From contig CALWLS010000009.1 in NCBI GenBank assembly GCA_944381575.1, positions 1-64,000 on the forward strand: DNA of 64,000 bases, read 5' to 3'. The notes under the pieces are model-generated. The model was not told where the DNA came from. It saw only the letters and a list, made by a program, of their open reading frames with translations, and searched no databases. This document shows, in pieces, positions 1-11,897 of the stretch. Every line of letters begins with the position of its first letter. Position 1 is the first letter of the stretch. The stretch is from an uncultured Lachnospiraceae bacterium. GTDB taxonomy: Bacteria; Bacillota; Clostridia; Lachnospirales; Lachnospiraceae. The translations under genes and the position numbers were made by a program.

Positions 1-70
1 GATTTTCAATACCTCTGTGCTTTCCATAACTTTTTGTCAGTCCATCTAACATTATCACCGCTTGTTTCAT
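1..70 (-). CDS. ABC transporter ATP-binding protein (N-terminal fragment, cut by window edge)
   Basis: Only the first 23 codons are inside the window; the gene continues beyond base 1. They read MKQAVIMLDGLTKSYG and then KHRGIEN, the usual first beta strand of an ABC ATPase (hydrophobic residues, then L-T-K-S-Y-G), so this is most likely the nucleotide-binding subunit of an exporter. The ATG at 68-70 overlaps the TGA stop of the TetR-type gene at 67-69, and a GGAGG Shine-Dalgarno lies inside the last codons of that gene, which implies translational coupling. The pair is probably a regulator-plus-exporter cassette. Substrate cannot be told from this fragment. Confidence 0.7.
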   Translation of the reverse strand, partial: MKQAVIMLDGLTKSYGKHRGIEN

Positions 71-678
71 AATAAATATTCCTCCTTGTAGAAATGATAT
101 TTTAACATTTTCAGAATATTCTCCATTTCGCACACGATTCTATCAAAATCTGACACACCTTCAATCTCGTCTACAATACCGTATCCAATATGCATCAATG
201 TGCGGAACAGTAGTGGCGCATCTTCGGGATGCTTGAATTTTACCAGATCGGCATCACGGAGCATCAGATCATGCAAGTGTTTTTCACCTTCTTGCATTAA
301 GTCCTTAATGTGCTCCGAAATTTCAATGGATGGCTCTTTTGCAACACTTATAATAAAAGCGACGATATAGGGATTCTTTTTCAAATTATCTATCTTCATG
401 ATTATGGCTTGCTGTACACGATCAAAGAAATCTGCGTTTGCATATAACGCCTGTTCCTGATAAACTGCTTTCATTTGTGTGCTGCTGTGTTCAACCAGAT
501 ATTCATAGAGGTTTTGCTTTGTACCAAAATATTGAAAAAGGGATGCCTTAGAGATGCCCGCCATTTTTGCAATGTCGTTAATCGATGCTTTTTCGTATCC
601 ATGCTGAGAGAAGCAAGATAGTGCTGCATTTCTAATTAAGGTTTGCTTTTCGTCAGAAAGTGCTAAAAATTTTTCCAT
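67..678 (-). CDS. TetR/AcrR family transcriptional regulator
   Basis: A 203-residue TetR-type repressor. Residues 10-55 form the helix-turn-helix domain (ISKASLFQYFGTKQNLYEYL region, matching the family pattern of S-x-LFxYFxxKxxLY), followed by a helical ligand-binding domain without recognisable specificity. ATG 676-678 is chosen because GGAGG sits five bases upstream; an in-frame TTG five codons earlier lacks a ribosome site. The gene is followed at once by an ABC transporter ATPase, with stop and start overlapping. Two copies of ACCGATTCGGT flank its promoter, so it very probably represses itself and the transporter. It lies in the segment interpreted as an integrative element. Confidence 0.85.
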   Translation of the reverse strand: MEKFLALSDEKQTLIRNAALSCFSQHGYEKASINDIAKMAGISKASLFQYFGTKQNLYEYLVEHSSTQMKAVYQEQALYANADFFDRVQQAIIMKIDNLKKNPYIVAFIISVAKEPSIEISEHIKDLMQEGEKHLHDLMLRDADLVKFKHPEDAPLLFRTLMHIGYGIVDEIEGVSDFDRIVCEMENILKMLKYHFYKEEYLL

Positions 679-691
679 AATAACCTCCAAC

Positions 692-712
692 AAATAACCG
701 ATTCGGTTATTT
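692..712. promoter_or_regulatory. TetR operator copy 1 (21-bp palindrome)
   Basis: AAATAACCGA-T-TCGGTTATTT is a perfect inverted repeat with 10-base arms around one central base. It overlaps the predicted +1 of the TetR promoter and ends just before the ribosome binding site. The core ACCGATTCGGT recurs once more 37 bp away (centre to centre). TetR-family proteins usually bind such dyads near their own promoter. Confidence 0.75.
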
Positions 713-718
713 TGCTAT

Positions 719-747
719 ACTATATCACGAATAACCGATTCGGTCAA
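719..747 (-). promoter_or_regulatory. Promoter of the TetR/ABC transporter operon
   Basis: On the minus strand a TTGACC -35 box (742-747) and a TATAGT -10 box (719-724) are separated by exactly 17 bases. The predicted start of transcription falls near 711, about 33 bases upstream of the ATG. Operator copy 2 covers the -35 box and adjoining spacer, and copy 1 covers the transcription start, the layout expected for repression by the encoded TetR protein. Confidence 0.7.
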
Positions 748-748
748 T
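731..748. promoter_or_regulatory. TetR operator copy 2
   Basis: ATAACCGATTCGGT (731-744) repeats the core of operator copy 1. The perfect dyad is ACCGATTCGGT at 734-744, with weaker symmetry outside it. It overlaps the -35 box TTGACC of the same promoter. Confidence 0.65.
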
Positions 749-770
749 ACAAATGTGCGTTTTTGTTCAT

Positions 771-802
771 AAAAATCGCCCGTGAGATATCTCCCACGGG
801 CG
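771..802 (-). terminator. Rho-independent terminator downstream of the DUF6061-like gene
   Basis: Read on the minus strand, an 8-bp perfect stem CGCCCGTG/CACGGGCG (777-784 with 795-802) is followed by a run of five T (771-775). It lies ten bases after the stop codon of the small gene at 812-1060 and separates it from the TetR promoter. Confidence 0.75.
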
Positions 803-811
803 GCAAAATAA

Positions 812-1060
812 TCAGCTTTCTAAAGGCTTATATTCAGTTACAGTTTTCAAATAGGTTTCAGGATTGCCGTTCAAAATCAAGTCTGCATATCCAATCGGGT
901 CAGTGTAAATCAGATAGTCAAGCTCTGACCGCTGATACATATTGTCAGCAACTTCATTCTCCACGGCGATGGTATCAATGGCAATCATGCTGCCATCAAA
1001 GAATTTCAGCTCCACACAAGCGGTATCCATGTTAAACTCACAAGAAATCAATCTATCCAT
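812..1060 (-). CDS. DUF6061-like small protein, mobile-element associated
   Basis: An 82-residue acidic protein without signal peptide or membrane segment. I recognise the pattern (LISCEFN near the start, VELKFFDGS, AVENEVADNMYQRSELDYL, LILNGNPE, YLKTVTEYKP near the end) as the DUF6061 family, which is common in Bacillota integrative elements; the function is unknown. A TGGAGG ribosome site precedes the ATG. It starts 24 bases after the stop of the rRNA methyltransferase tail and ends in a terminator, so it may be co-transcribed with that gene. Its presence supports the view that this end of the window is element DNA. Confidence 0.6.
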   Translation of the reverse strand: MDRLISCEFNMDTACVELKFFDGSMIAIDTIAVENEVADNMYQRSELDYLIYTDPIGYADLILNGNPETYLKTVTEYKPLES

Positions 1061-1084
1061 AAGAAACCTCCATTTTACGGGATG

Positions 1085-2677
1085 TTAGATTATCCCAAAA
1101 TATTTGAATGCTTCTCGGATTGCTTTCTCTTTTTCTGGCGGACACAGGGGCTGTCTGGAATCTTCGGATTTTGGCAGATTGTAGTTCTTGCCAACCTCAA
1201 TCCCACATTTCCGCTTAATCTGTGAGATATACAGGTTAGACACCTTTAATCCGCTATGTTCCAGTACATAGTCCTTGATCTGCGTGTAGGTTGCCCCATC
1301 CTGAAATTCGGACATATCCATATCTTCCAAAGAGAACTCAACCCGAATCTTTTTCGAGTCGACCTCGCCCTTGGAAAGCAAGACAACCGTCTCCACATTA
1401 TTGGTCCAAGGGAACTGGTCGACAGCCACGGCCTTAATGAGCCTGTATCCTGCATCATTTAAGACCACCAGGTCCCTTGCGAGGCTTTCCGGCTTACAGC
1501 TCACGTAGATCATGTTTTTGACTCCGTAGGCTATTATCTTTTTTAAGGCCTTTGGATTTACTCCGTCCCTCGGAGGGTCCAGGACTATCACATCTGGAGC
1601 CGGGAGCTCGTCAAGGGCCTTTAAGACATCCCCGGCAATAAAATCACAGTTTGAAAGCCCGTTCTTCTCCGCATTTTCCCTGGCAGCCTCAACAGCCTCC
1701 TCAACTATCTCCACTCCAGTCACATGTCCTACGCATGGAGCAAGTATCTGGGCTATGGTCCCGGTCCCGGAATACAGATCGTAGACCGTCATGTCCTTAT
1801 CAAGCTCGTCTATTATAAATTCCCTCACCTTGGAATATAAGACCTCAGCTCCTTTGGAGTTGGTCTGGAAAAACGAGAACGGCGAGATATCAAATTTAAG
1901 TCCCAGGAGCTCCTCGGAAATGTGGTCCCCACCGTACAGCACGCTGGTGCCCTCATTTTTAACGGCGTCAGCCTTCGAGTCATTCACGGTATGGAGTATA
2001 CCTTTTATGCTTCCCTCAAGCTCACCCCTTTTGGAAAGCTCCGTAAGGCAGTCCCTTAACCCTGAAAGCAGCTCCTTTTCGTCTACATATGACGCCTCAT
2101 AAGCTTCATTTAAACTTCCGTCTTCATTATAGAGGTCAGGAGCATATATGTCGGAATGCTTTTTGACCTTAACCGGCTTTTGTGTGGTGGTGACCAGGTC
2201 TATCAGCATTTCTCCCGTATTTACGGCTCTCCTGATTATGAGATATCTGAGATATCCCTTATGGGACCTTTTGTCCTTGTAGGTGACTCCAAGTCCCCTG
2301 AAATACTCCGCAGCGGCTCTTACCACCCGGTTGCAGTCCTCGTGTACCAGCAGACAGCAGTCCACGTCTATCACATCGTAAAAGCTTTTTTTTCTGTGGA
2401 GCCCCAGGGTAAGCGGCCCGTCCTTCATACAGTCTCCGAAGCTGTACTCCATCTTGTTGCGATAGGCGAATATCAGAGGGCTCTCGATTATCTCCTGATA
2501 CTCAAAGCCATAGCTGCAGGCCCCCTCAAGAAGGCTCCTTACTCTATTATCCTTTTCCAAAAGCTGTTCCGAGCATTTTTTTCCACAATAAAAACAGCCT
2601 CCGCATATACCGCCGAGGCTGCAATCATTTGTCATATCACGCGGAACAGACTGTTCCTTATTATTCATAATCCTCAT
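1085..2677 (-). CDS. rlmD: 23S rRNA (uracil-5-)-methyltransferase, RlmD/RumA type, with foreign C-terminal extension
   Basis: SAM-dependent m5U methyltransferase acting on 23S rRNA. Residues ~18-26 carry the iron-sulfur motif C-x5-CGGC. The catalytic domain has YDLYSGTGTIA (SAM binding), VLDPPRDG, and the nucleophile cysteine in YVSCKPESLARD. The conserved end N-V-E-T-V-V is near residue 428; family members usually stop soon after, but this protein has ~100 extra residues (YTQIKDYVLEHSGLKVSNLY, CGIEVGKNYNLPKSE, ALKYFG-like end), resembling a small DNA-binding or recombinase-linked tail. I read this as frame restoration after an element inserted. The start is uncertain: ATG 2677 or ATG 2668, the latter nearer a GAGG. 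It overlaps the upstream small gene by up to 17 bp. Confidence 0.85.
   Translation of the reverse strand: MRIMNNKEQSVPRDMTNDCSLGGICGGCFYCGKKCSEQLLEKDNRVRSLLEGACSYGFEYQEIIESPLIFAYRNKMEYSFGDCMKDGPLTLGLHRKKSFYDVIDVDCCLLVHEDCNRVVRAAAEYFRGLGVTYKDKRSHKGYLRYLIIRRAVNTGEMLIDLVTTTQKPVKVKKHSDIYAPDLYNEDGSLNEAYEASYVDEKELLSGLRDCLTELSKRGELEGSIKGILHTVNDSKADAVKNEGTSVLYGGDHISEELLGLKFDISPFSFFQTNSKGAEVLYSKVREFIIDELDKDMTVYDLYSGTGTIAQILAPCVGHVTGVEIVEEAVEAARENAEKNGLSNCDFIAGDVLKALDELPAPDVIVLDPPRDGVNPKALKKIIAYGVKNMIYVSCKPESLARDLVVLNDAGYRLIKAVAVDQFPWTNNVETVVLLSKGEVDSKKIRVEFSLEDMDMSEFQDGATYTQIKDYVLEHSGLKVSNLYISQIKRKCGIEVGKNYNLPKSEDSRQPLCPPEKEKAIREAFKYFGII
1383..1397. other. Candidate attachment-site core in the rRNA methyltransferase gene
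   Basis: On the minus strand GTGGAGACGGTTGT (1383-1396) encodes V-E-T-V-V, the last strongly conserved motif of RumA-type enzymes and a known target region for rum-specific integrases. Native enzymes normally end a few residues later, but here the frame runs on for about 100 more codons. The exact crossover base cannot be fixed from one end. Confidence 0.4.
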
Positions 2678-2942
2678 CCGAAACTAATACTTCAGGCTCC
2701 TCATCGTCATCGAAGAGATCATCGATGTCATCATAATCATCGGCGAAGTCGCCAATGTTCCTGTATACTATATACGCTATAACTCCAATAAGAGTAAGCG
2801 CTCCAAGTACTGAGAGGATAATGATGAGGATCCTCCTGGTCTCCGTCTCATTGTCTCGCATGCTGTTCTTGACCTTTGAGATGAGCTCGTCGATCGTCTG
2901 CTTTGCTTCGTTAAGTGATACTAAAGCTGCTATCTTATCCAT
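2661..2942 (-). CDS. Small single-pass membrane protein with acidic tail, function unknown
   Basis: A 93-residue protein. Residues ~1-35 are a helical cytoplasmic-looking segment (MDKIAALVSLNEAKQTIDEL), ~36-60 one membrane helix (ILIIILSVLGALTLIGVIAY), then a strongly acidic tail of Asp and Glu clusters. ATG 2940-2942 is chosen because a GGGAGG site precedes it; the longer frame to 2993 lacks one. It has its own promoter and overlaps the start of the methyltransferase gene. Similar small proteins are known in Lachnospiraceae, but I cannot assign a role. Confidence 0.7.
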   Translation of the reverse strand: MDKIAALVSLNEAKQTIDELISKVKNSMRDNETETRRILIIILSVLGALTLIGVIAYIVYRNIGDFADDYDDIDDLFDDDEEPEVLVSDEDYE

Positions 2943-2983
2943 ATCAAAACCTCCCGGCAACTTATCGTTTTTGTCCTGTTTCG

Positions 2984-3012
2984 ATAATAACACAACTGAT
3001 AATCAAATGCAA
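2984..3012 (-). promoter_or_regulatory. Promoter of the small membrane protein / rRNA methyltransferase genes
   Basis: Minus-strand TTGCAT (3007-3012), 17-base spacer, TATTAT (2984-2989). It begins just beyond the end of pcrA (stop at 3018) and would start transcription about 35 bases upstream of the ATG at 2942. Confidence 0.55.
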
Positions 3013-3017
3013 TTTGA

Positions 3018-5513
3018 TCATATTTTTTTCAGCTTTGCAAAGCCGGCGTACATGACCTTTGTGCCGTATTCGTCAAACTCCACCGTAACCTTGTAATCCG
3101 TAGGCTCGTCGGATATGGAGATCACACTGCCGTCTCCGAATTTAAAATGCCTTACCCGGTCTCCCTCACCGTAATCCGGTTTCTGCTTTACCATGTTCTG
3201 GCCTTTGTTTAAGCCCGATATCGAAGACAGGGAACGTTTCCTTCCCCTTCCGGCGGCTGAAGTATCCAGCGAACCGTACCTTCCAAAGACTGCCTCGCCG
3301 TTTTTGTCCCCGTATCTGTAAGAGGAGGTGTTAAAGGCGTTATAGGCGCTGTATGCCCTTTCCTCGCTGCTCCTTTCATCTCCGTTAAATGACGTTTCTC
3401 CTATGGAACCGTATGAAAGCTCCTTTTCGAGCCTGCCCTCATAGCCCCCGAAGTTTGAAAAAGCAGGCTTTTCAGAAAGAGTGCGCCTTCTGAAATATTT
3501 TTCCGCGCAGCTGTCGGGGATCTCCTCTATAAATCTTGAGGGCTTCATGTAGTGCATCTCGCCGTTCACCATGCGCTCCCTGGCCGAGCTTAAGAACAGC
3601 TTTTTCCTTGCCCTCGTTATGCCAACGTAGCACAGCCTTCTTTCCTCCTCTATCTCTGCCACGGGATCGTCAGAGTTTATTGATGCTGCCGAAGGGAAAA
3701 GCCCCTCCTCCATACCGCTCAGATATACCACATCGAACTCCAGTCCCTTGGCGGAATGCAGGGTCATCATGGTCAGCACATCGTCGGTATCGTTCATCCT
3801 GTCGATATCCGCTACTAAAGACACCTCTTCAAGAAATGCGGAAAGCTCTGAAAGCCCGTTTGCAGGCCTGACCTCTGACTCGTCTTCCGCAATTTTGCCA
3901 TCATCGGCATTTTCCAAAGCGCCCGTTGTATTTTCAGGACTGCTCTGGTGATCAGCAGCCTTATTTATAAGCTCCTCTATATTTTCGAGCCTTGTCTCGG
4001 CAGTGACCGGATCTTCTTTTTTAAGCTCGTCGCCGTATCCCGTATCATTTACGATATTTCTAATGGCGTCGGTGATATCAAGCTCATTTTCCGCGATCCG
4101 TTTCCTGATATTTTCTATGTAATCCGTAAAGGCACGGATCTTTTTTGCCGTTCCCGAGGTTATGCCCGGTATGTTCTCAGGCCTCAGGAGAGCCTCATAA
4201 AATGATCCCCCGTTTATATCCGAAAATGCAGTCACCCTGTCAACGGTGGTCTGCCCTATACCCCTCTTCGGGACGTTGATTATCCTGCGGCATGACACAT
4301 CGTCGGTGCCGTTGGCTATGACTCTCAGATAAGAAAGAATGTCCTTTATCTCCCTCCTCTGGTAGAAATTCACTCCGCCGACTATGGTATACGGGATATT
4401 TCTTGAAATGCACTTTTCCTCAAGAAGCCTCGACTGGGCGTTTGTCCTGTATAATACGGCCTGGTCCTTAAGAGGATATCCGCTCTCGGACATAAGCAAT
4501 GCCTCCCGTATTATGCTTTCAGCCTCTCCCGCCGCCGTGTCATATTCATTGTAAACAGGAAGCTCTCCTGTTTCATTTTCCGTCCACAGGCTCTTATCCT
4601 TTCTGCCGGTATTGTTCTTAATGACCTCATTGGCAGCATTTAAAATGCTCTTTGTGGATCTGTAATTCTGCTCAAGCTTTATTACCTTTGCCCCCGGGAA
4701 TGCCTTTTCAAAGTTCAGGATATTTTCTATATTAGCTCCCCTGAATTTGTATATAGACTGGTCATCATCCCCGACCACGCAGAGGTTTTTGTATTTGTCC
4801 GCCAGCATCCTTACGAGCTCAAACTGCACATTGTTGGTATCCTGGTACTCGTCGACCATAATATACTTAAAGCGCTCCTGCCAGTACAAAAGTACATCCG
4901 GGTGCTCGTTAAAAAGCTCCACGGTCTTTATCAGCAGGTCGTCAAAATCCAAAGCGTTATTGGCCTTAAGCTCCTTTTCGTACTCGGCGTATATCTTTGC
5001 CACATTCCTGTCATAGAAATCACCGGCCTCGTTTTCCATATCCTCCGCTGATATCATGAGATTTTTATTTGAAGATATGATGCTTAAGACGCCTCTTTCC
5101 CTGTATATCTTGGTATCGAGATTGAGCTTTTTTATGCAGGCCTTTATCAGCGTCTTCTGATCGTCAGTATCATAGATGGTAAAGTCCGATGCATAGCCGA
5201 GCTTATCTATATCACGCCTTAAGAGCCTTACGCACATGGAGTGGAAGGTGGATACGAATACCCTTCCTGCGTCATAGCCGGAAAGAAGGCCGTTCACCCT
5301 TTCCCTCATCTCCCCTGCCGCCTTGTTTGTAAAGGTTATGGCAAGGATGTTCCATGGAGCAGTTCCATTTTCTATCAGATATCCTATCCTGTGGGTCAGC
5401 ACCCTGGTCTTTCCTGAGCCGGCTCCTGCCAAAATAAGAAGCGGCCCTTCTGTATATTCGACCGCTTCCTTCTGCTCTTTATTTAATCCGTTTAAGAGTC
5501 CTTCTCCGTACAT
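3018..5513 (-). CDS. pcrA: ATP-dependent DNA helicase PcrA/UvrD
   Basis: An 831-residue superfamily 1 3'-5' helicase for nucleotide excision repair and removal of RecA or stalled polymerase. Motifs in order: Q motif LNKEQKEAV, Walker A AGAGSGKT (~30), TFTNKAA (Ia), VDEYQDTN (II, ~225), GDDDQSIYKFRGA (III), LEQNYRS (IV), TLHSAKGLEFD (V), and YVGITRARKKL (VI). The last ~50 residues form the Tudor-like domain that contacts RNA polymerase (GDRVRHFKFGDGSV). Length is slightly above the typical ~740 because of a long linker before that domain. The ATG follows GGAGTGATGA. It sits 17 bases downstream of serS and may be read from the same transcript. Confidence 0.97.
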   Translation of the reverse strand: MYGEGLLNGLNKEQKEAVEYTEGPLLILAGAGSGKTRVLTHRIGYLIENGTAPWNILAITFTNKAAGEMRERVNGLLSGYDAGRVFVSTFHSMCVRLLRRDIDKLGYASDFTIYDTDDQKTLIKACIKKLNLDTKIYRERGVLSIISSNKNLMISAEDMENEAGDFYDRNVAKIYAEYEKELKANNALDFDDLLIKTVELFNEHPDVLLYWQERFKYIMVDEYQDTNNVQFELVRMLADKYKNLCVVGDDDQSIYKFRGANIENILNFEKAFPGAKVIKLEQNYRSTKSILNAANEVIKNNTGRKDKSLWTENETGELPVYNEYDTAAGEAESIIREALLMSESGYPLKDQAVLYRTNAQSRLLEEKCISRNIPYTIVGGVNFYQRREIKDILSYLRVIANGTDDVSCRRIINVPKRGIGQTTVDRVTAFSDINGGSFYEALLRPENIPGITSGTAKKIRAFTDYIENIRKRIAENELDITDAIRNIVNDTGYGDELKKEDPVTAETRLENIEELINKAADHQSSPENTTGALENADDGKIAEDESEVRPANGLSELSAFLEEVSLVADIDRMNDTDDVLTMMTLHSAKGLEFDVVYLSGMEEGLFPSAASINSDDPVAEIEEERRLCYVGITRARKKLFLSSARERMVNGEMHYMKPSRFIEEIPDSCAEKYFRRRTLSEKPAFSNFGGYEGRLEKELSYGSIGETSFNGDERSSEERAYSAYNAFNTSSYRYGDKNGEAVFGRYGSLDTSAAGRGRKRSLSSISGLNKGQNMVKQKPDYGEGDRVRHFKFGDGSVISISDEPTDYKVTVEFDEYGTKVMYAGFAKLKKI

Positions 5514-8605: not shown

Positions 8606-9490
8606 TTATCTGTGCTGAGCTGTTTTAAGCTCCTCGTATATCTGAACGTAGCTTTTGTATCTTTCCATGCTTATGAGTCCGTTTAAGGCCGCTCTTTTTA
8701 CGGCGCAGATATCCTCCGCTTCCTTTATATGGCTGCAGCCGGCAAATCTGCACTCAGGTATGAAGCCTGCGAACTCATTAAAATACCTGTCAAGCTCTCC
8801 CGGCTCTATGCCGCTCAGATAGAGGGATGTAAATCCCGGCGTATCCAGCAGATAGCTGTCCTCATCAAGGCTGAAGAGCTCAGTATGCCTGGTAGTCTGT
8901 CTGCCTCTTTTTATCTTGCGGGACAGCTCTCCGACCTCCATCCGGTCATTATCAAAAAGCCTGTTGGTCAGGGATGACTTGCCGACCCCTGAGGGCCCGG
9001 CAAGGACCGTGGTTTTGCCCTTAAGGGCGTTTTTGATCTCTTCGATGGTGCTCTCAGCATTGGTCGACCCCGAGATAACCCGGTATCCCGCCTTCTCATA
9101 TATACGGCGGTATACGTCCTTAAGTCCTGAATCATCCAGGTCTGCCTTATTAAAGTATATGGTCACGGGTATATCCTGCAGTGCCATATATATCAGAAAT
9201 CTGTCCAGCAGGCCGAAATTCGGATCCGGCTCCCTTAAGGCAAATACTATCATGGCCTGATCTACATTGGCCACCGCAGGACGTATGAGTACATTTTTCC
9301 TCGGATGTATCCCGGAGAGACTTCCTTCAAGAGCCTGTTCGTCGATAATGTCAAAATCCGCATTATCCCCCGGCAGCGGCTTTATGCCGAGCTTTCGGAA
9401 TATTCCCACCGCCCTGCATGAAAACACCTTCCCGTCACGGGTATGTATGTAGTAAAACCCGCCGATGCCTTTTATTATCTTACCTTCCAT
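8606..9490 (-). CDS. rsgA: Ribosome small subunit-dependent GTPase RsgA
   Basis: A 294-residue circularly permuted GTPase that checks late 30S subunit maturation. Order of motifs is permuted as expected: G4 NKADL, then G1 AGPSGVGKSSL, switch region RHTELF, and G3 DTPGFTSL. The OB fold occupies residues ~1-70. The C-terminal zinc knuckle shows C-x5-C-x-H-x6-C (CRFAGCSH, then DIC). The gene follows prkC by 22 bases, the conserved kinase-rsgA-rpe arrangement; PrkC-type kinases are known to phosphorylate RsgA. Confidence 0.97.
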   Translation of the reverse strand: MEGKIIKGIGGFYYIHTRDGKVFSCRAVGIFRKLGIKPLPGDNADFDIIDEQALEGSLSGIHPRKNVLIRPAVANVDQAMIVFALREPDPNFGLLDRFLIYMALQDIPVTIYFNKADLDDSGLKDVYRRIYEKAGYRVISGSTNAESTIEEIKNALKGKTTVLAGPSGVGKSSLTNRLFDNDRMEVGELSRKIKRGRQTTRHTELFSLDEDSYLLDTPGFTSLYLSGIEPGELDRYFNEFAGFIPECRFAGCSHIKEAEDICAVKRAALNGLISMERYKSYVQIYEELKTAQHR

Positions 9491-9512
9491 TGGACCTCTG
9501 TACCCGAACTGA

Positions 9513-11897
9513 TCATGAAGCCGGACCGAAGCTTATGGAATATGTTGCAAATATTTCCATAGTATCGGCGTCAAAAACCTCTACAAATCCTTCCGTAACG
9601 CCGTAAGCGCCTCTTATATTTCTGAATGTCACAGGGATCCTCGAGCCAAGAGCTACCGGTATTGGATCCATAAGCTGCGTGTATTCGTCCGATCCGTTTA
9701 CCTGCTGCCTGAGCCTGATCCCCACATTGATATGGTCGCTCGCTCCAGGCCCCTCTCTGCTTCCTATGCTGCAGGAGGTATCGATATCCCCGTAAAAATA
9801 CTCATCGCTTAAGCTATGTGACTGGTCTGCAGCTGTCCCCTGACTAAGGTTTATATCAGGTGAATCAGTAATATCAGTCCCGTCAGCTATACCGCTTCCG
9901 GAGCCCACGCTTAAGGATATATCCACTGAGCTTCCCTTTTTGATATATTCTCCGGCTGCCGCAGACTGTCCCGCAACCATGCCTGCCGCATATTCAGATG
10001 TATTTAACGCCGTCACCTTTCCAAGCTTAAGCTCCGCTGTGCCAAGCTCAAGTATGGCCGAAGGCCTTGTCATTCCGCTTAGATCAGGCATGAGAGAGTA
10101 TCCTGATTCACTTCCACGGCTCACAGAGAGCCTTACCCATTTACTGTCAGGCCCTGCGGTATCGTATCCCCGCGGGCTTTCCGTTTCTCCGTCTGCACCG
10201 GAGCTTTCAGTTCCTTCAGCCGATCCCTCCTGCAGGCTTTCCTCAGGCGGACTTAAAGATATCGGCTGTCCGTTTTCATCAAGCAGCGTATAGCCGCATA
10301 CATTTCCTTCCTGGACAACGTCGCTGAATACCTGCTCGGTAGTGTTGTCAACGGTATATCCCTCGCTTACCAGCTTATCCGTGGCAGAAGCAACGGAATC
10401 ATTCTGCAGATCATCCAGTACCGATCCCTTTGATACCGTCACGAACACCGTAGTCTCGGATGTGATGATGGTTCCCTTTGCAGGCTCCTGATTTATTATC
10501 TCTCCAGCCTCATATACATCGGAGTAGGCTTCGGAGGAAGAATCCATGCTGAGCTGCAGGTCCGCAAGCCTTGCCCTTGCCGTATCCACATTTACTCCAA
10601 GGAGATCCGGCATGAGATCCTCGCCGCTTATGCTTATGGTATAATCCATCTCCGTTTCAGCTTCGGAGGCCGGGGAAATGGAGGCAGCTTCTACCTCCTC
10701 AGTTTCCGCAAGACTCGCCATAAGCTCCGGATCCCCGGCTCTCTTTATCATAATAAGAGAGAATATGCCAAGTCCTAACACAATGGCGATAAGGGCTGCC
10801 ACAGGAGCCACGCGTTTTATTGCAGAACCCTTGGCCGGTTTCTGGCCGTCATGCGGCTCCCTGCTTCCGGCATCGTTTTTTTCTGGTGTTTCAGACTGTT
10901 CTTCCTTAGCATCCCTGCCGCCTTCAGATGCGGCGTCGGACTTTGCTTCACCTGTTCCTTCATTCTGCGGCTTTGTCCCTTTGGTATCCGCTTCATTATC
11001 CACGGGATCATTTTTCTGATCAACGGCCTCAGCAGATCCTGCCGCAGAATCGAACAGCTTTACAAAATGCCCTGTGGGATCATTTACGGCGTGCCTGAGG
11101 TCTTCAATAAGCTCATCCGCCGTCTGGTATCTTTCGTCAGGATCCTTTTTCGTAGCCTTTACTATTATGTCGTTCAAGGCAGGATATATATCGTGATTAT
11201 ATACCGAAGGCGGTACCAGCACATTCTGTATATGAGCCATCACTATGCTTACGGTATCCTCCCCGTCATAAGGAAGCACGCCGGTGATCATCTCATACAT
11301 GCTTATGCCAAGGGAATATATGTCCGACCTGGCGTCCGTTATGCCGGTCTTTGCCTGCTCCGGGGCCATGTAATGGGCTGAGCCTATCACTATATGGTTT
11401 CCCTTATCATCCTCGGCTGCAGCCTGGGCTATGCCAAAATCCGCAACCTTTATCTTACCGTCCTTGGATATGATTATATTCTGAGGCTTGACGTCCCTGT
11501 GGACGATGCCGTTTTTATGGGCTTCCGATATGCCTGAAGCTGCCTGAAGCGCAATGCCTATGGTTTCCTTGTTGGTGAGAACGCCCTTTTTGGCGATATA
11601 GTTTTTCAGGCTTATGCCCTCAACAAGCTCCATCACTATATAGTGAAGCTCTCCGGAATCAACTATGTCATAGGCAGCTACTATATTAGGATGCGTAAGT
11701 CTGGCAGCCGACCTGGCTTCGTTTTTAAAGCGCTCAACAAATTCCTCGTCGGCAGACAGCTCCTCCTTAAGCACCTTTATCGCAACTTCCCTGCCAAGCT
11801 TTTTATCCACGGCGCGGTAAACATAGGACATGCCTCCCTGTCCTATCCTTCCGGTTATCTCATATCTTTCATCAAGCAGATCATTTATATTAAGCAT
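9513..11897 (-). CDS. prkC: PASTA-domain Ser/Thr protein kinase (PrkC/Stk)
   Basis: Membrane receptor kinase sensing muropeptides or lipid II. Kinase domain residues ~10-270: GRIGQGGMSYVY (P-loop), VAIKVL (Lys), IVHRDVKPQN (catalytic loop), VADFGIAQ (DFG). A charged juxtamembrane stretch precedes one membrane helix (APVAALIAIVLGLGIFSLIM). Outside are three PASTA repeats (MPDLLGVNVDTARA, an internal divergent one, and MPDLSGMTRPSAI), with a Ser/Glu-rich insert in the second, then a ~100-residue extra C-terminal domain. ATG 11895-11897 (MLNINDLLDERY) overlaps the stop of the phosphatase gene by 8 bases. Confidence 0.95.
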   Translation of the reverse strand: MLNINDLLDERYEITGRIGQGGMSYVYRAVDKKLGREVAIKVLKEELSADEEFVERFKNEARSAARLTHPNIVAAYDIVDSGELHYIVMELVEGISLKNYIAKKGVLTNKETIGIALQAASGISEAHKNGIVHRDVKPQNIIISKDGKIKVADFGIAQAAAEDDKGNHIVIGSAHYMAPEQAKTGITDARSDIYSLGISMYEMITGVLPYDGEDTVSIVMAHIQNVLVPPSVYNHDIYPALNDIIVKATKKDPDERYQTADELIEDLRHAVNDPTGHFVKLFDSAAGSAEAVDQKNDPVDNEADTKGTKPQNEGTGEAKSDAASEGGRDAKEEQSETPEKNDAGSREPHDGQKPAKGSAIKRVAPVAALIAIVLGLGIFSLIMIKRAGDPELMASLAETEEVEAASISPASEAETEMDYTISISGEDLMPDLLGVNVDTARARLADLQLSMDSSSEAYSDVYEAGEIINQEPAKGTIITSETTVFVTVSKGSVLDDLQNDSVASATDKLVSEGYTVDNTTEQVFSDVVQEGNVCGYTLLDENGQPISLSPPEESLQEGSAEGTESSGADGETESPRGYDTAGPDSKWVRLSVSRGSESGYSLMPDLSGMTRPSAILELGTAELKLGKVTALNTSEYAAGMVAGQSAAAGEYIKKGSSVDISLSVGSGSGIADGTDITDSPDINLSQGTAADQSHSLSDEYFYGDIDTSCSIGSREGPGASDHINVGIRLRQQVNGSDEYTQLMDPIPVALGSRIPVTFRNIRGAYGVTEGFVEVFDADTMEIFATYSISFGPAS

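What the first reader, a model, noticed from the sequence alone, without database searches (positions are those of the whole stretch)
1..1396. Element end inside a rumA-type gene, with the reading frame restored by a foreign 100-codon tail
The rRNA methyltransferase (1085-2677) keeps all its motifs through N-V-E-T-V-V near residue 428 and then runs ~100 extra residues that are not part of the family fold. Just beyond lie a DUF6061-like gene and a TetR/ABC cassette, typical cargo. rumA/rum is a known target of serine-recombinase elements. The tail itself (YTQIKDYVLEHSGLKVSNLY) looks like a conserved element-borne domain that could have a role of its own, for example in keeping the host enzyme working.
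Basis: partly seen in the sequence, partly recalled or inferred. Interest (0 to 1): 0.7.

Follow-up and report, generated by a model that had tools for sequence, protein, structure and literature searches.

The report
Protein tail traded by a recombinase
A ribosome-methylating enzyme in this gut bacterium ends in a conserved tail of about 100 residues that other genomes also carry on the recombinases of mobile elements, so an element that likely inserted here would have swapped protein ends with the enzyme, a swap predicted to change how its own recombinase behaves.

Summary
The RlmD (RumA)-type gene at 1085-2677 (-) looks native to Glu429, then carries an element-borne tail; its best orthologs in the genus lack it. 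The window starts at the contig end, so the other junction of this element is unseen.

Relatives show the mechanism. These elements carry the attachment site inside their large serine recombinase (LSR) gene. In 19 integrated elements RlmD has the tail at one end and an LSR lies at the other: ending in a short RlmD-like stub (10), a full foreign tail (3), a partial, cut or longer extension (5), or frame-broken (1). C-termini are traded in frame. The crossover most likely lies at GA of the Glu codon, the residue aligned with general base E443 of pneumococcal RlmCD.

The tail is under purifying selection (median dN/dS 0.09) and weakly predicted to be helix-turn-helix. It co-varies with the LSR (Mantel r = 0.94), not with RlmD (0.03). 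A related group of LSRs keeps it permanently. I infer an integration-dependent recombinase switch; linkage alone could explain the co-variation.

Exchange with a frame change was already reported for streptococcal rumA elements (PMC4701971). The in-frame, conserved domain is the new part.

The parts
1391..2677 (-). native part of the RlmD/RumA-type 23S rRNA uracil methyltransferase, residues 1-429
   Evidence: TIGR00479 to residue 429; tail-free orthologs in the genus
1392..1393 (-). likely crossover dinucleotide GA, first two bases of the Glu429 codon
   Evidence: inferred: only dinucleotide compatible with attL/attR in 18 of 18 elements aligned at this codon; its own identity follows from the alignment
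1370..1390 (-). element-encoded TVVLLSK that refills the end of the RlmD motif
   Evidence: sequence; median dN/dS of ETVVLLS 0.089 in 87 RlmD-fused tails
1295..1369 (-). linker of the element-borne tail
   Evidence: alignment A2; dN/dS of tail residues 8-33 0.104
1088..1294 (-). predicted helix-turn-helix-like domain of the tail (residues 462-530)
   Evidence: AF2 and weak LacI-headpiece-like matches; dN/dS 0.085
812..1060 (-). DUF6061 gene next to the tail, likely element cargo
   Evidence: PF19537 E 3.6e-42; DUF6061-like gene within 1.5 kb downstream of 32 of 99 tails with enough sequence
67..693 (-). TetR-type regulator, likely cargo
   Evidence: PF00440 E 3.6e-15
1..70 (-). start of an ABC-transporter-like gene, cut by the contig end
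   Evidence: read by eye from the sequence; not tested
2661..5513 (-). chromosomal flank (small membrane-type protein 2661-2993, UvrD-type helicase 3018-5513) shared in order with the tail-free G305 locus
   Evidence: ORFs of L062; gene names from sequence, not tested against a library

Best explanation
The junction is most likely the left attachment site of a serine-recombinase element that inserted at the catalytic-Glu codon of rlmD and would have traded C-termini with it, giving RlmD a ~100-residue tail that likely works as a removable domain of the element's own recombinase. In the free circle the attachment site would lie inside the recombinase (LSR) gene, which would read: catalytic body, V-E-T-V-V-L-L-S, linker, predicted helix-turn-helix. 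Integration puts the tail on RlmD and leaves the LSR with a few residues of native RlmD. Shown by comparison with other genomes: tail on RlmD at one end and LSR ending at the motif at the other, in-frame exchange, selection on the tail, tail-LSR co-variation, LSRs with the tail fixed. Inferred: the circle itself, the exact GA crossover, that the tail acts on the LSR (for example by extra DNA contact that favours integration), that losing it helps lock the integrated state, and that TVVLLSK lets RlmD stay active.
For: Near-identical tails on RlmD and on full-length LSRs. In 19 of 37 loci RlmD+tail is followed 4-16 kb downstream by an LSR on the same strand; 10 LSRs end in a short RlmD-like stub. 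Tail-free RlmD in the genera of the window and of C. fessum. Median dN/dS 0.093 over usable pairs of 87 tails. Mantel r = 0.94 with the LSR, 0.03 with the RlmD host, n = 19. Nine LSRs with the domain fixed, 9 of 9 directly followed by a second LSR. Tail-bearing RlmD very likely active: RlmCD data.
Confidence: 0.6

Rival explanations
1. Host patch: the element carries a replacement 3' end so that RlmD keeps its frame, last strand and activity, which lowers the cost of insertion; the long domain is tolerated baggage or stabilises the enzyme.
For: TVVLLSK refills the conserved RlmD end and is selected at protein level. RlmCD with its long C-terminus is strongly active (PMC5614603). In the second LSR class the tail is in frame with RlmD only.
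Against: RlmCD without the extension is ~25% more active, so the domain is not needed. It does not co-vary with the RlmD host (r = 0.03) and it is fixed on LSRs that have no exchange site before it.
Confidence: 0.18
2. Gain of function in the integrated state: the RlmD-tail fusion, or the tail as a small separate protein, binds DNA and serves the integrated element, for example as a regulator, an excision factor in trans or a block against a second insertion.
For: Predicted helix-turn-helix, a 69-residue stand-alone phage family matches the domain (phrog_27283), and the out-of-frame class can make the domain only as an RlmD fusion or apart.
Against: Tandem insertions do occur (L053, L054, L060), so exclusion is at best incomplete. 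No target DNA is known. DNA binding by the tail is untested.
Confidence: 0.17
3. The tail is an ordinary lineage-specific extension of RlmD, not tied to mobile elements.
For: Databases annotate tailed proteins simply as RlmD.
Against: Best orthologs lack it; near-identical tails sit on unrelated RlmD backbones and on LSRs; no correlation with the RlmD host.
Confidence: 0.02

Closest known systems
Streptococcal ICEs integrated in rumA (Ambroset et al. 2016, PMC4701971, sections 23 and 31 part 1 read) and phage phi m46.1 in rum (PMC4288039, passages)
   Same: Serine integrase, att site inside the integrase gene, reciprocal exchange of the 3' parts of rumA and integrase; the authors already suggest two functional forms of the integrase.
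   Different: There the exchange is said to change the reading frame of both proteins; here it is in frame on both sides and moves a conserved, selected domain that is also found fixed on related recombinases.
Myxococcus phage Mx8 (tyrosine integrase; known to me only as cited in PMC4701971)
   Same: attP inside the integrase gene; integration replaces a 112-residue C-terminus by 13 residues and the integrase becomes less active.
   Different: Unrelated recombinase family; no host protein is reported there to receive a conserved domain.
Integration-dependent immunity of mycobacteriophages (search listing; details recalled)
   Same: Integration changes the C-terminus of a phage protein.
   Different: The split gene there is a repressor that loses a degradation tag (recalled); here it is the recombinase.
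S. pneumoniae RlmCD, SP_1029 (PMC5614603, section 5; PMC6235398, passages)
   Same: Same enzyme family; the 1-454 construct ends inside the motif (HHVE443TVALLSKLDVD) and the full protein has 543 residues, as does a tailed S. agalactiae RlmD that aligns with it over 1-453.
   Different: Described there as a self-inhibitory C-terminal region; by this analysis very likely an element tail. Its C-terminal sequence was not seen here.

Membership tests
rumA/rlmD-targeting serine-recombinase elements | one junction inside rlmD at the conserved C-terminal motif | tested here: met
   window junction at E429; tail-free orthologs
rumA/rlmD-targeting serine-recombinase elements | large serine recombinase at the other end with its 3' end in the second junction | tested here: inconclusive
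   shown in 18 of 19 related elements with the motif readable in the LSR; for the window's own element the contig ends first
rumA/rlmD-targeting serine-recombinase elements | circular form with attP | not testable with these tools
   no reads; no circular record found
streptococcal rumA ICEs (Ambroset 2016) | exchange that changes the frame of both proteins | tested here: not met
   in-frame on both sides in the main class; the frame change is seen only with the second LSR class
LacI-type helix-turn-helix headpiece | three-helix HTH fold | tested here: inconclusive
RlmD (TIGR00479) | score above the curated cut-off and general-base Glu present | tested here: met
   238.1 bits against 183.55; Glu429 aligns with E443 of RlmCD
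integration-dependent immunity | attP inside the repressor gene | tested here: not met
   the split gene is the recombinase; the defining feature itself is recalled

The most novel reading that the evidence does not exclude
A commuting domain switch: the recombinase carries a detachable DNA-binding domain beside its own attachment site, so that each integration strips the domain from the recombinase and hangs it on the host's 23S rRNA methyltransferase at the codon of its catalytic glutamate, making the insertion self-locking while the host enzyme stays active; paired-recombinase elements keep a fixed copy of the domain on a partner recombinase that can supply the function after integration.
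Probability: 0.4. Interest if true: 0.85.

Novelty: new variant of a known kind. Interest (0 to 1): 0.7.

Why it matters
How serine integrases control direction is an open and applied question. Here nature offers the same recombinase with and without one compact domain, set by integration itself, so the effect of the domain can be tested directly. It explains why many RlmD proteins in databases (the tail searches returned 7990, 2025 and 4856 proteins of all kinds) have an odd C-terminus, and it probably re-explains the 'self-inhibitory' C-terminus of pneumococcal RlmCD as a mobile-element remnant. The view that serine-recombinase elements simply disrupt rumA (PMC5704250, passages) would need correction: the insertion keeps the catalytic Glu and refills the end of the fold.

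Tried and rejected
AC as crossover dinucleotide: proposed from two elements, rejected because it is identical in only 15 of 18. GA replaced it, with a limit: I aligned attL and attR at a Glu codon found by a motif, so GA agrees in 18 of 18 by construction; what the test shows is that no other dinucleotide survives. Un-anchored, the longest common string covers GA in 9 of 19; in the other 10 a string of 7-9 bases elsewhere is longest. L055 was dropped from the 18 because its LSR frame ends before the motif.

A named family for the tail: no match over a cut-off in Pfam or NCBIfam, none in PDB sequences at E below 0.04; Foldseek found nothing at E below 1 in the PDB or viral libraries.

Permanent-tail LSRs as the ancestral state: not claimed. 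In the tree they are one of several branches of an unresolved fork. L159_524 was mislabelled permanent by my motif pattern, ten LSRs whose ends the pattern missed were left out, and the LSR-a of L184 was not in the tree.

Circular forms: one plasmid record with tails, 34 viral loci, 11 phage records; none shown to be an excised element.

The C-terminus of SP_1029: no S. pneumoniae entry is named among the 120 listed rows of each of three protein searches, so the tail there rests on length and alignment.

Empty-site flank test for C. fessum: the DNA flank found no match in the relatives' loci, so empty sites there rest on protein ends only.

Literature: searches (open-access library; no preprints, most subscription journals missing). 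Only PMC4701971 was found to describe the exchange; I found none on the in-frame domain.
Full report
WHAT IS IN THE WINDOW. The gene at 1085-2677 (-) encodes 530 residues. TIGR00479 (RlmD) fits to residue 429 and related models to 436; the tail has no Pfam or NCBIfam match. Residue 429 is the Glu of N-N-V-E-T-V-V-L-L-S-K. Beyond the stop lie DUF6061 (812-1060) and TetR (67-693), then an ABC-like start (1-70, by eye). Window position 1 is the end of contig C9 of an 18-contig, 2.0-Mb genome, so nothing can be read further left.

THE TAIL IS FOREIGN. In 24 other genomes of the genus the best RlmD match ends before residue 457 in 22; G117's reaches 494 only through four stop codons; G311's full-length match is a 47%-identical paralog. 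The 75%-identical ortholog of G305 has the same two upstream genes and ends WTNNVETVCLLRKVLA*; G304's ends WTKNVETVVLLSRAGAFRQA*; G308's ends in what looks like a decayed tail. Tails do occur in the genus on other RlmD paralogs (G299, G306, G309, G311, G312). In the window's own genome a second RlmD paralog begins contig C10 with a near-identical tail start (94% over 16 residues) cut by the contig end, and contig C7 ends in a serine recombinase whose C-terminus is V-E-T-V-V-L-L-S plus a divergent tail.

WHERE ELSE IT OCCURS. Searching with residues 432-530 gave 7990 proteins (7993 candidates scored, a capped set). Of the 120 listed, 99 carry the methyltransferase domain PF05958 (my hand count); the other 21 include full-length large serine recombinases (LSRs: P0017, P0018, P0024, P0038), LSR parts, four aldo/keto reductases and one Ig-like protein. 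In the 19 sequences that I read the shared part begins at E-T-V-V-L-L-S-K. A tail match at E 1e-6 is in 119 of 299 genomes sampled from the family and in 6 of 398 sampled from the phylum, both samples including the window's own genome. Of 118 tail matches in the 114 loci L092-L205, 69 are on RlmD, 22 on LSRs, 23 have at most 39 residues before the tail, 3 lie in no open frame and 1 is on something else.

BOTH ENDS. I examined 37 loci. In 19, RlmD+tail has an LSR downstream on the same strand, 4-16 kb away; in the other 18 one end was missing from the stretch or not recognised. Of the 19 LSRs, 10 end shortly after the motif like native RlmD (for example VETVVLMSKVKE*, VETVVLMSRK*, VETVCLLSCK*, IETVVLMSRVKN*); 3 carry a full tail of another type, as expected for tandem insertions (L053, L054, L060); 5 end in a partial or longer extension or are cut by the contig end (L049, L052, L061, L251, L254); in L055 the frame ends before the motif. 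Tail-free RlmD genes in the genus of C. fessum end in the same style: GHCECVVKLERKGRI*, GHTESIVLLQKSVK*, GHVETVTLLVREP*, RHVETVVQLSQ*; the flanking DNA of the C. fessum element found no match in those loci. So RlmD gives a short native end and receives the tail, and the LSR does the reverse, in frame on both sides.

THE CROSSOVER. I aligned attL and attR at the Glu codon in 18 of the 19 elements (L055 dropped). No dinucleotide other than GA, the first two bases of that codon, is identical in all; the next best reach 15 of 18. GA itself agrees by construction, because both motifs begin with Glu. Without the anchor, the longest common string covers GA in 9 of 19 (8-17 bases); in the other 10 strings of 7-9 bases elsewhere are longer, about what chance gives. 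The direct repeats are thus very short, as PMC4701971 reports for its elements (2-21 bp), and GA is the best candidate, not proven. An earlier proposal of AC was wrong. The Glu aligns with E443 of S. [quoted passage not shown]

IT FOLLOWS THE RECOMBINASE. Across the 19 elements tail distance correlates with LSR-body distance (Mantel r = 0.94, P = 0.0001) and not with the RlmD it is fused to (r = 0.03, P = 0.27); for the 16 without a full tail on the LSR the values are 0.935 and 0.12 (P = 0.07). Tail and LSR sit at opposite ends of the integrated element but would be adjacent in the circle, so linkage alone could give this. A second line is a group of LSRs with the domain and no exchange motif before it. 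Nine were found, and 9 of 9 are directly followed by a second LSR (six overlap by 4 bp; the others -44, +9 and +24 bp). Seven of these second LSRs end at the motif or carry an exchangeable tail, one is cut by its contig end inside the motif (L190), and one goes out of frame within its tail (L184). A profile built from 81 rows without the permanent domains finds them at 83-105 bits. Eight of the nine are in the tree and form one clade (99/100). They are not independent: L188/L190 and L059/L189 are close relatives.

AGAINST A PURE RECOMBINASE ROLE. A second LSR class has the same core but reads it in another frame: in 4 of 4 loci with an adjacent tail (L086, L099, L181, L252) the tail is one frame off. 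This agrees with Ambroset et al. 2016 (PMC4701971, section 23 and part 1 of section 31 read), who report reciprocal exchange with a frame change in streptococcal ICEs and already suggest two functional integrase forms, by analogy with phage Mx8. In that class the domain could be made only as an RlmD fusion or as a separate small protein.

RLMD WITH A TAIL STILL WORKS, VERY LIKELY. Full-length RlmCD has 543 residues (PMC6235398, passages). The 1-454 construct ends HHVETVALLSKLDVD. A 543-residue S. agalactiae RlmD aligns with it over 1-453 and runs on into a tail. Both RlmCD forms are strongly active, the short one ~25% more. I did not see the SP_1029 C-terminus, so 'RlmCD carries a tail' is inferred from length and motif.

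ELEMENT TYPE. Related elements carry relaxases (PF03432 and PF01076 in L050, MobA/MobL in L057), a ParB-like protein and an IS110-type transposase (L050), which fits mobilizable elements. The window element's cargo beyond the ABC-like start is unknown.

VERDICT. The finding is real: an element end with a foreign, conserved, in-frame tail. The exchange is a known kind. The in-frame, selected, probably DNA-binding domain that follows the recombinase and is fixed on partner recombinases is a new variant. The switch function is inferred and directly testable.

Noticed in passing
L010:1-1304 (own genome, contig C10 start): A second RlmD paralog carries a near-identical tail start (94% over 16 residues), cut by the contig end; the genome probably holds at least two such elements.
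   Followed up: partly
L011:7759-19459 (own genome, contig C7 end): A serine recombinase cut by the contig end carries a divergent tail (37%); downstream lie a gene that looks like a type I restriction-modification methyltransferase and phage-like genes (labels by eye).
   Followed up: partly
L059:3405-7081; also L180, L182, L184, L185, L186, L188, L189, L190: Pairs of adjacent serine recombinases in which the first keeps the tail domain permanently and the second has the exchange motif (9 of 9).
   Followed up: yes
P0012-P0015, P0022: The same tail is fused to an aldo/keto reductase and to an Ig-like protein, probably off-target insertions; only P0012 and P0022 were read.
   Followed up: no
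P0149, P0154, L086:1333-1728: The same tail sequence is on RlmD of S. agalactiae and Aerococcus mictus and, with one residue changed (by eye), on an Anaerococcus plasmid that holds two tail copies: recent transfer between genera.
   Followed up: no
phrog_27283: A 69-residue phage protein family of unknown function matches the tail domain; it could be a stand-alone form.
   Followed up: no
L064 (G308): The RlmD ortholog ends in what looks like a decayed tail (VCLLSRRKPDDTIKVSVNMDDYYQIRDAEEAEKNPS*), a possible remnant of a lost element.
   Followed up: no
G282:C1 (one contig, 2856089 bases): A tail at 9340-9663 and its likely recombinase at 2844731-2846503, both on the minus strand, suggest an element spanning the ends of the record.
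   Followed up: no
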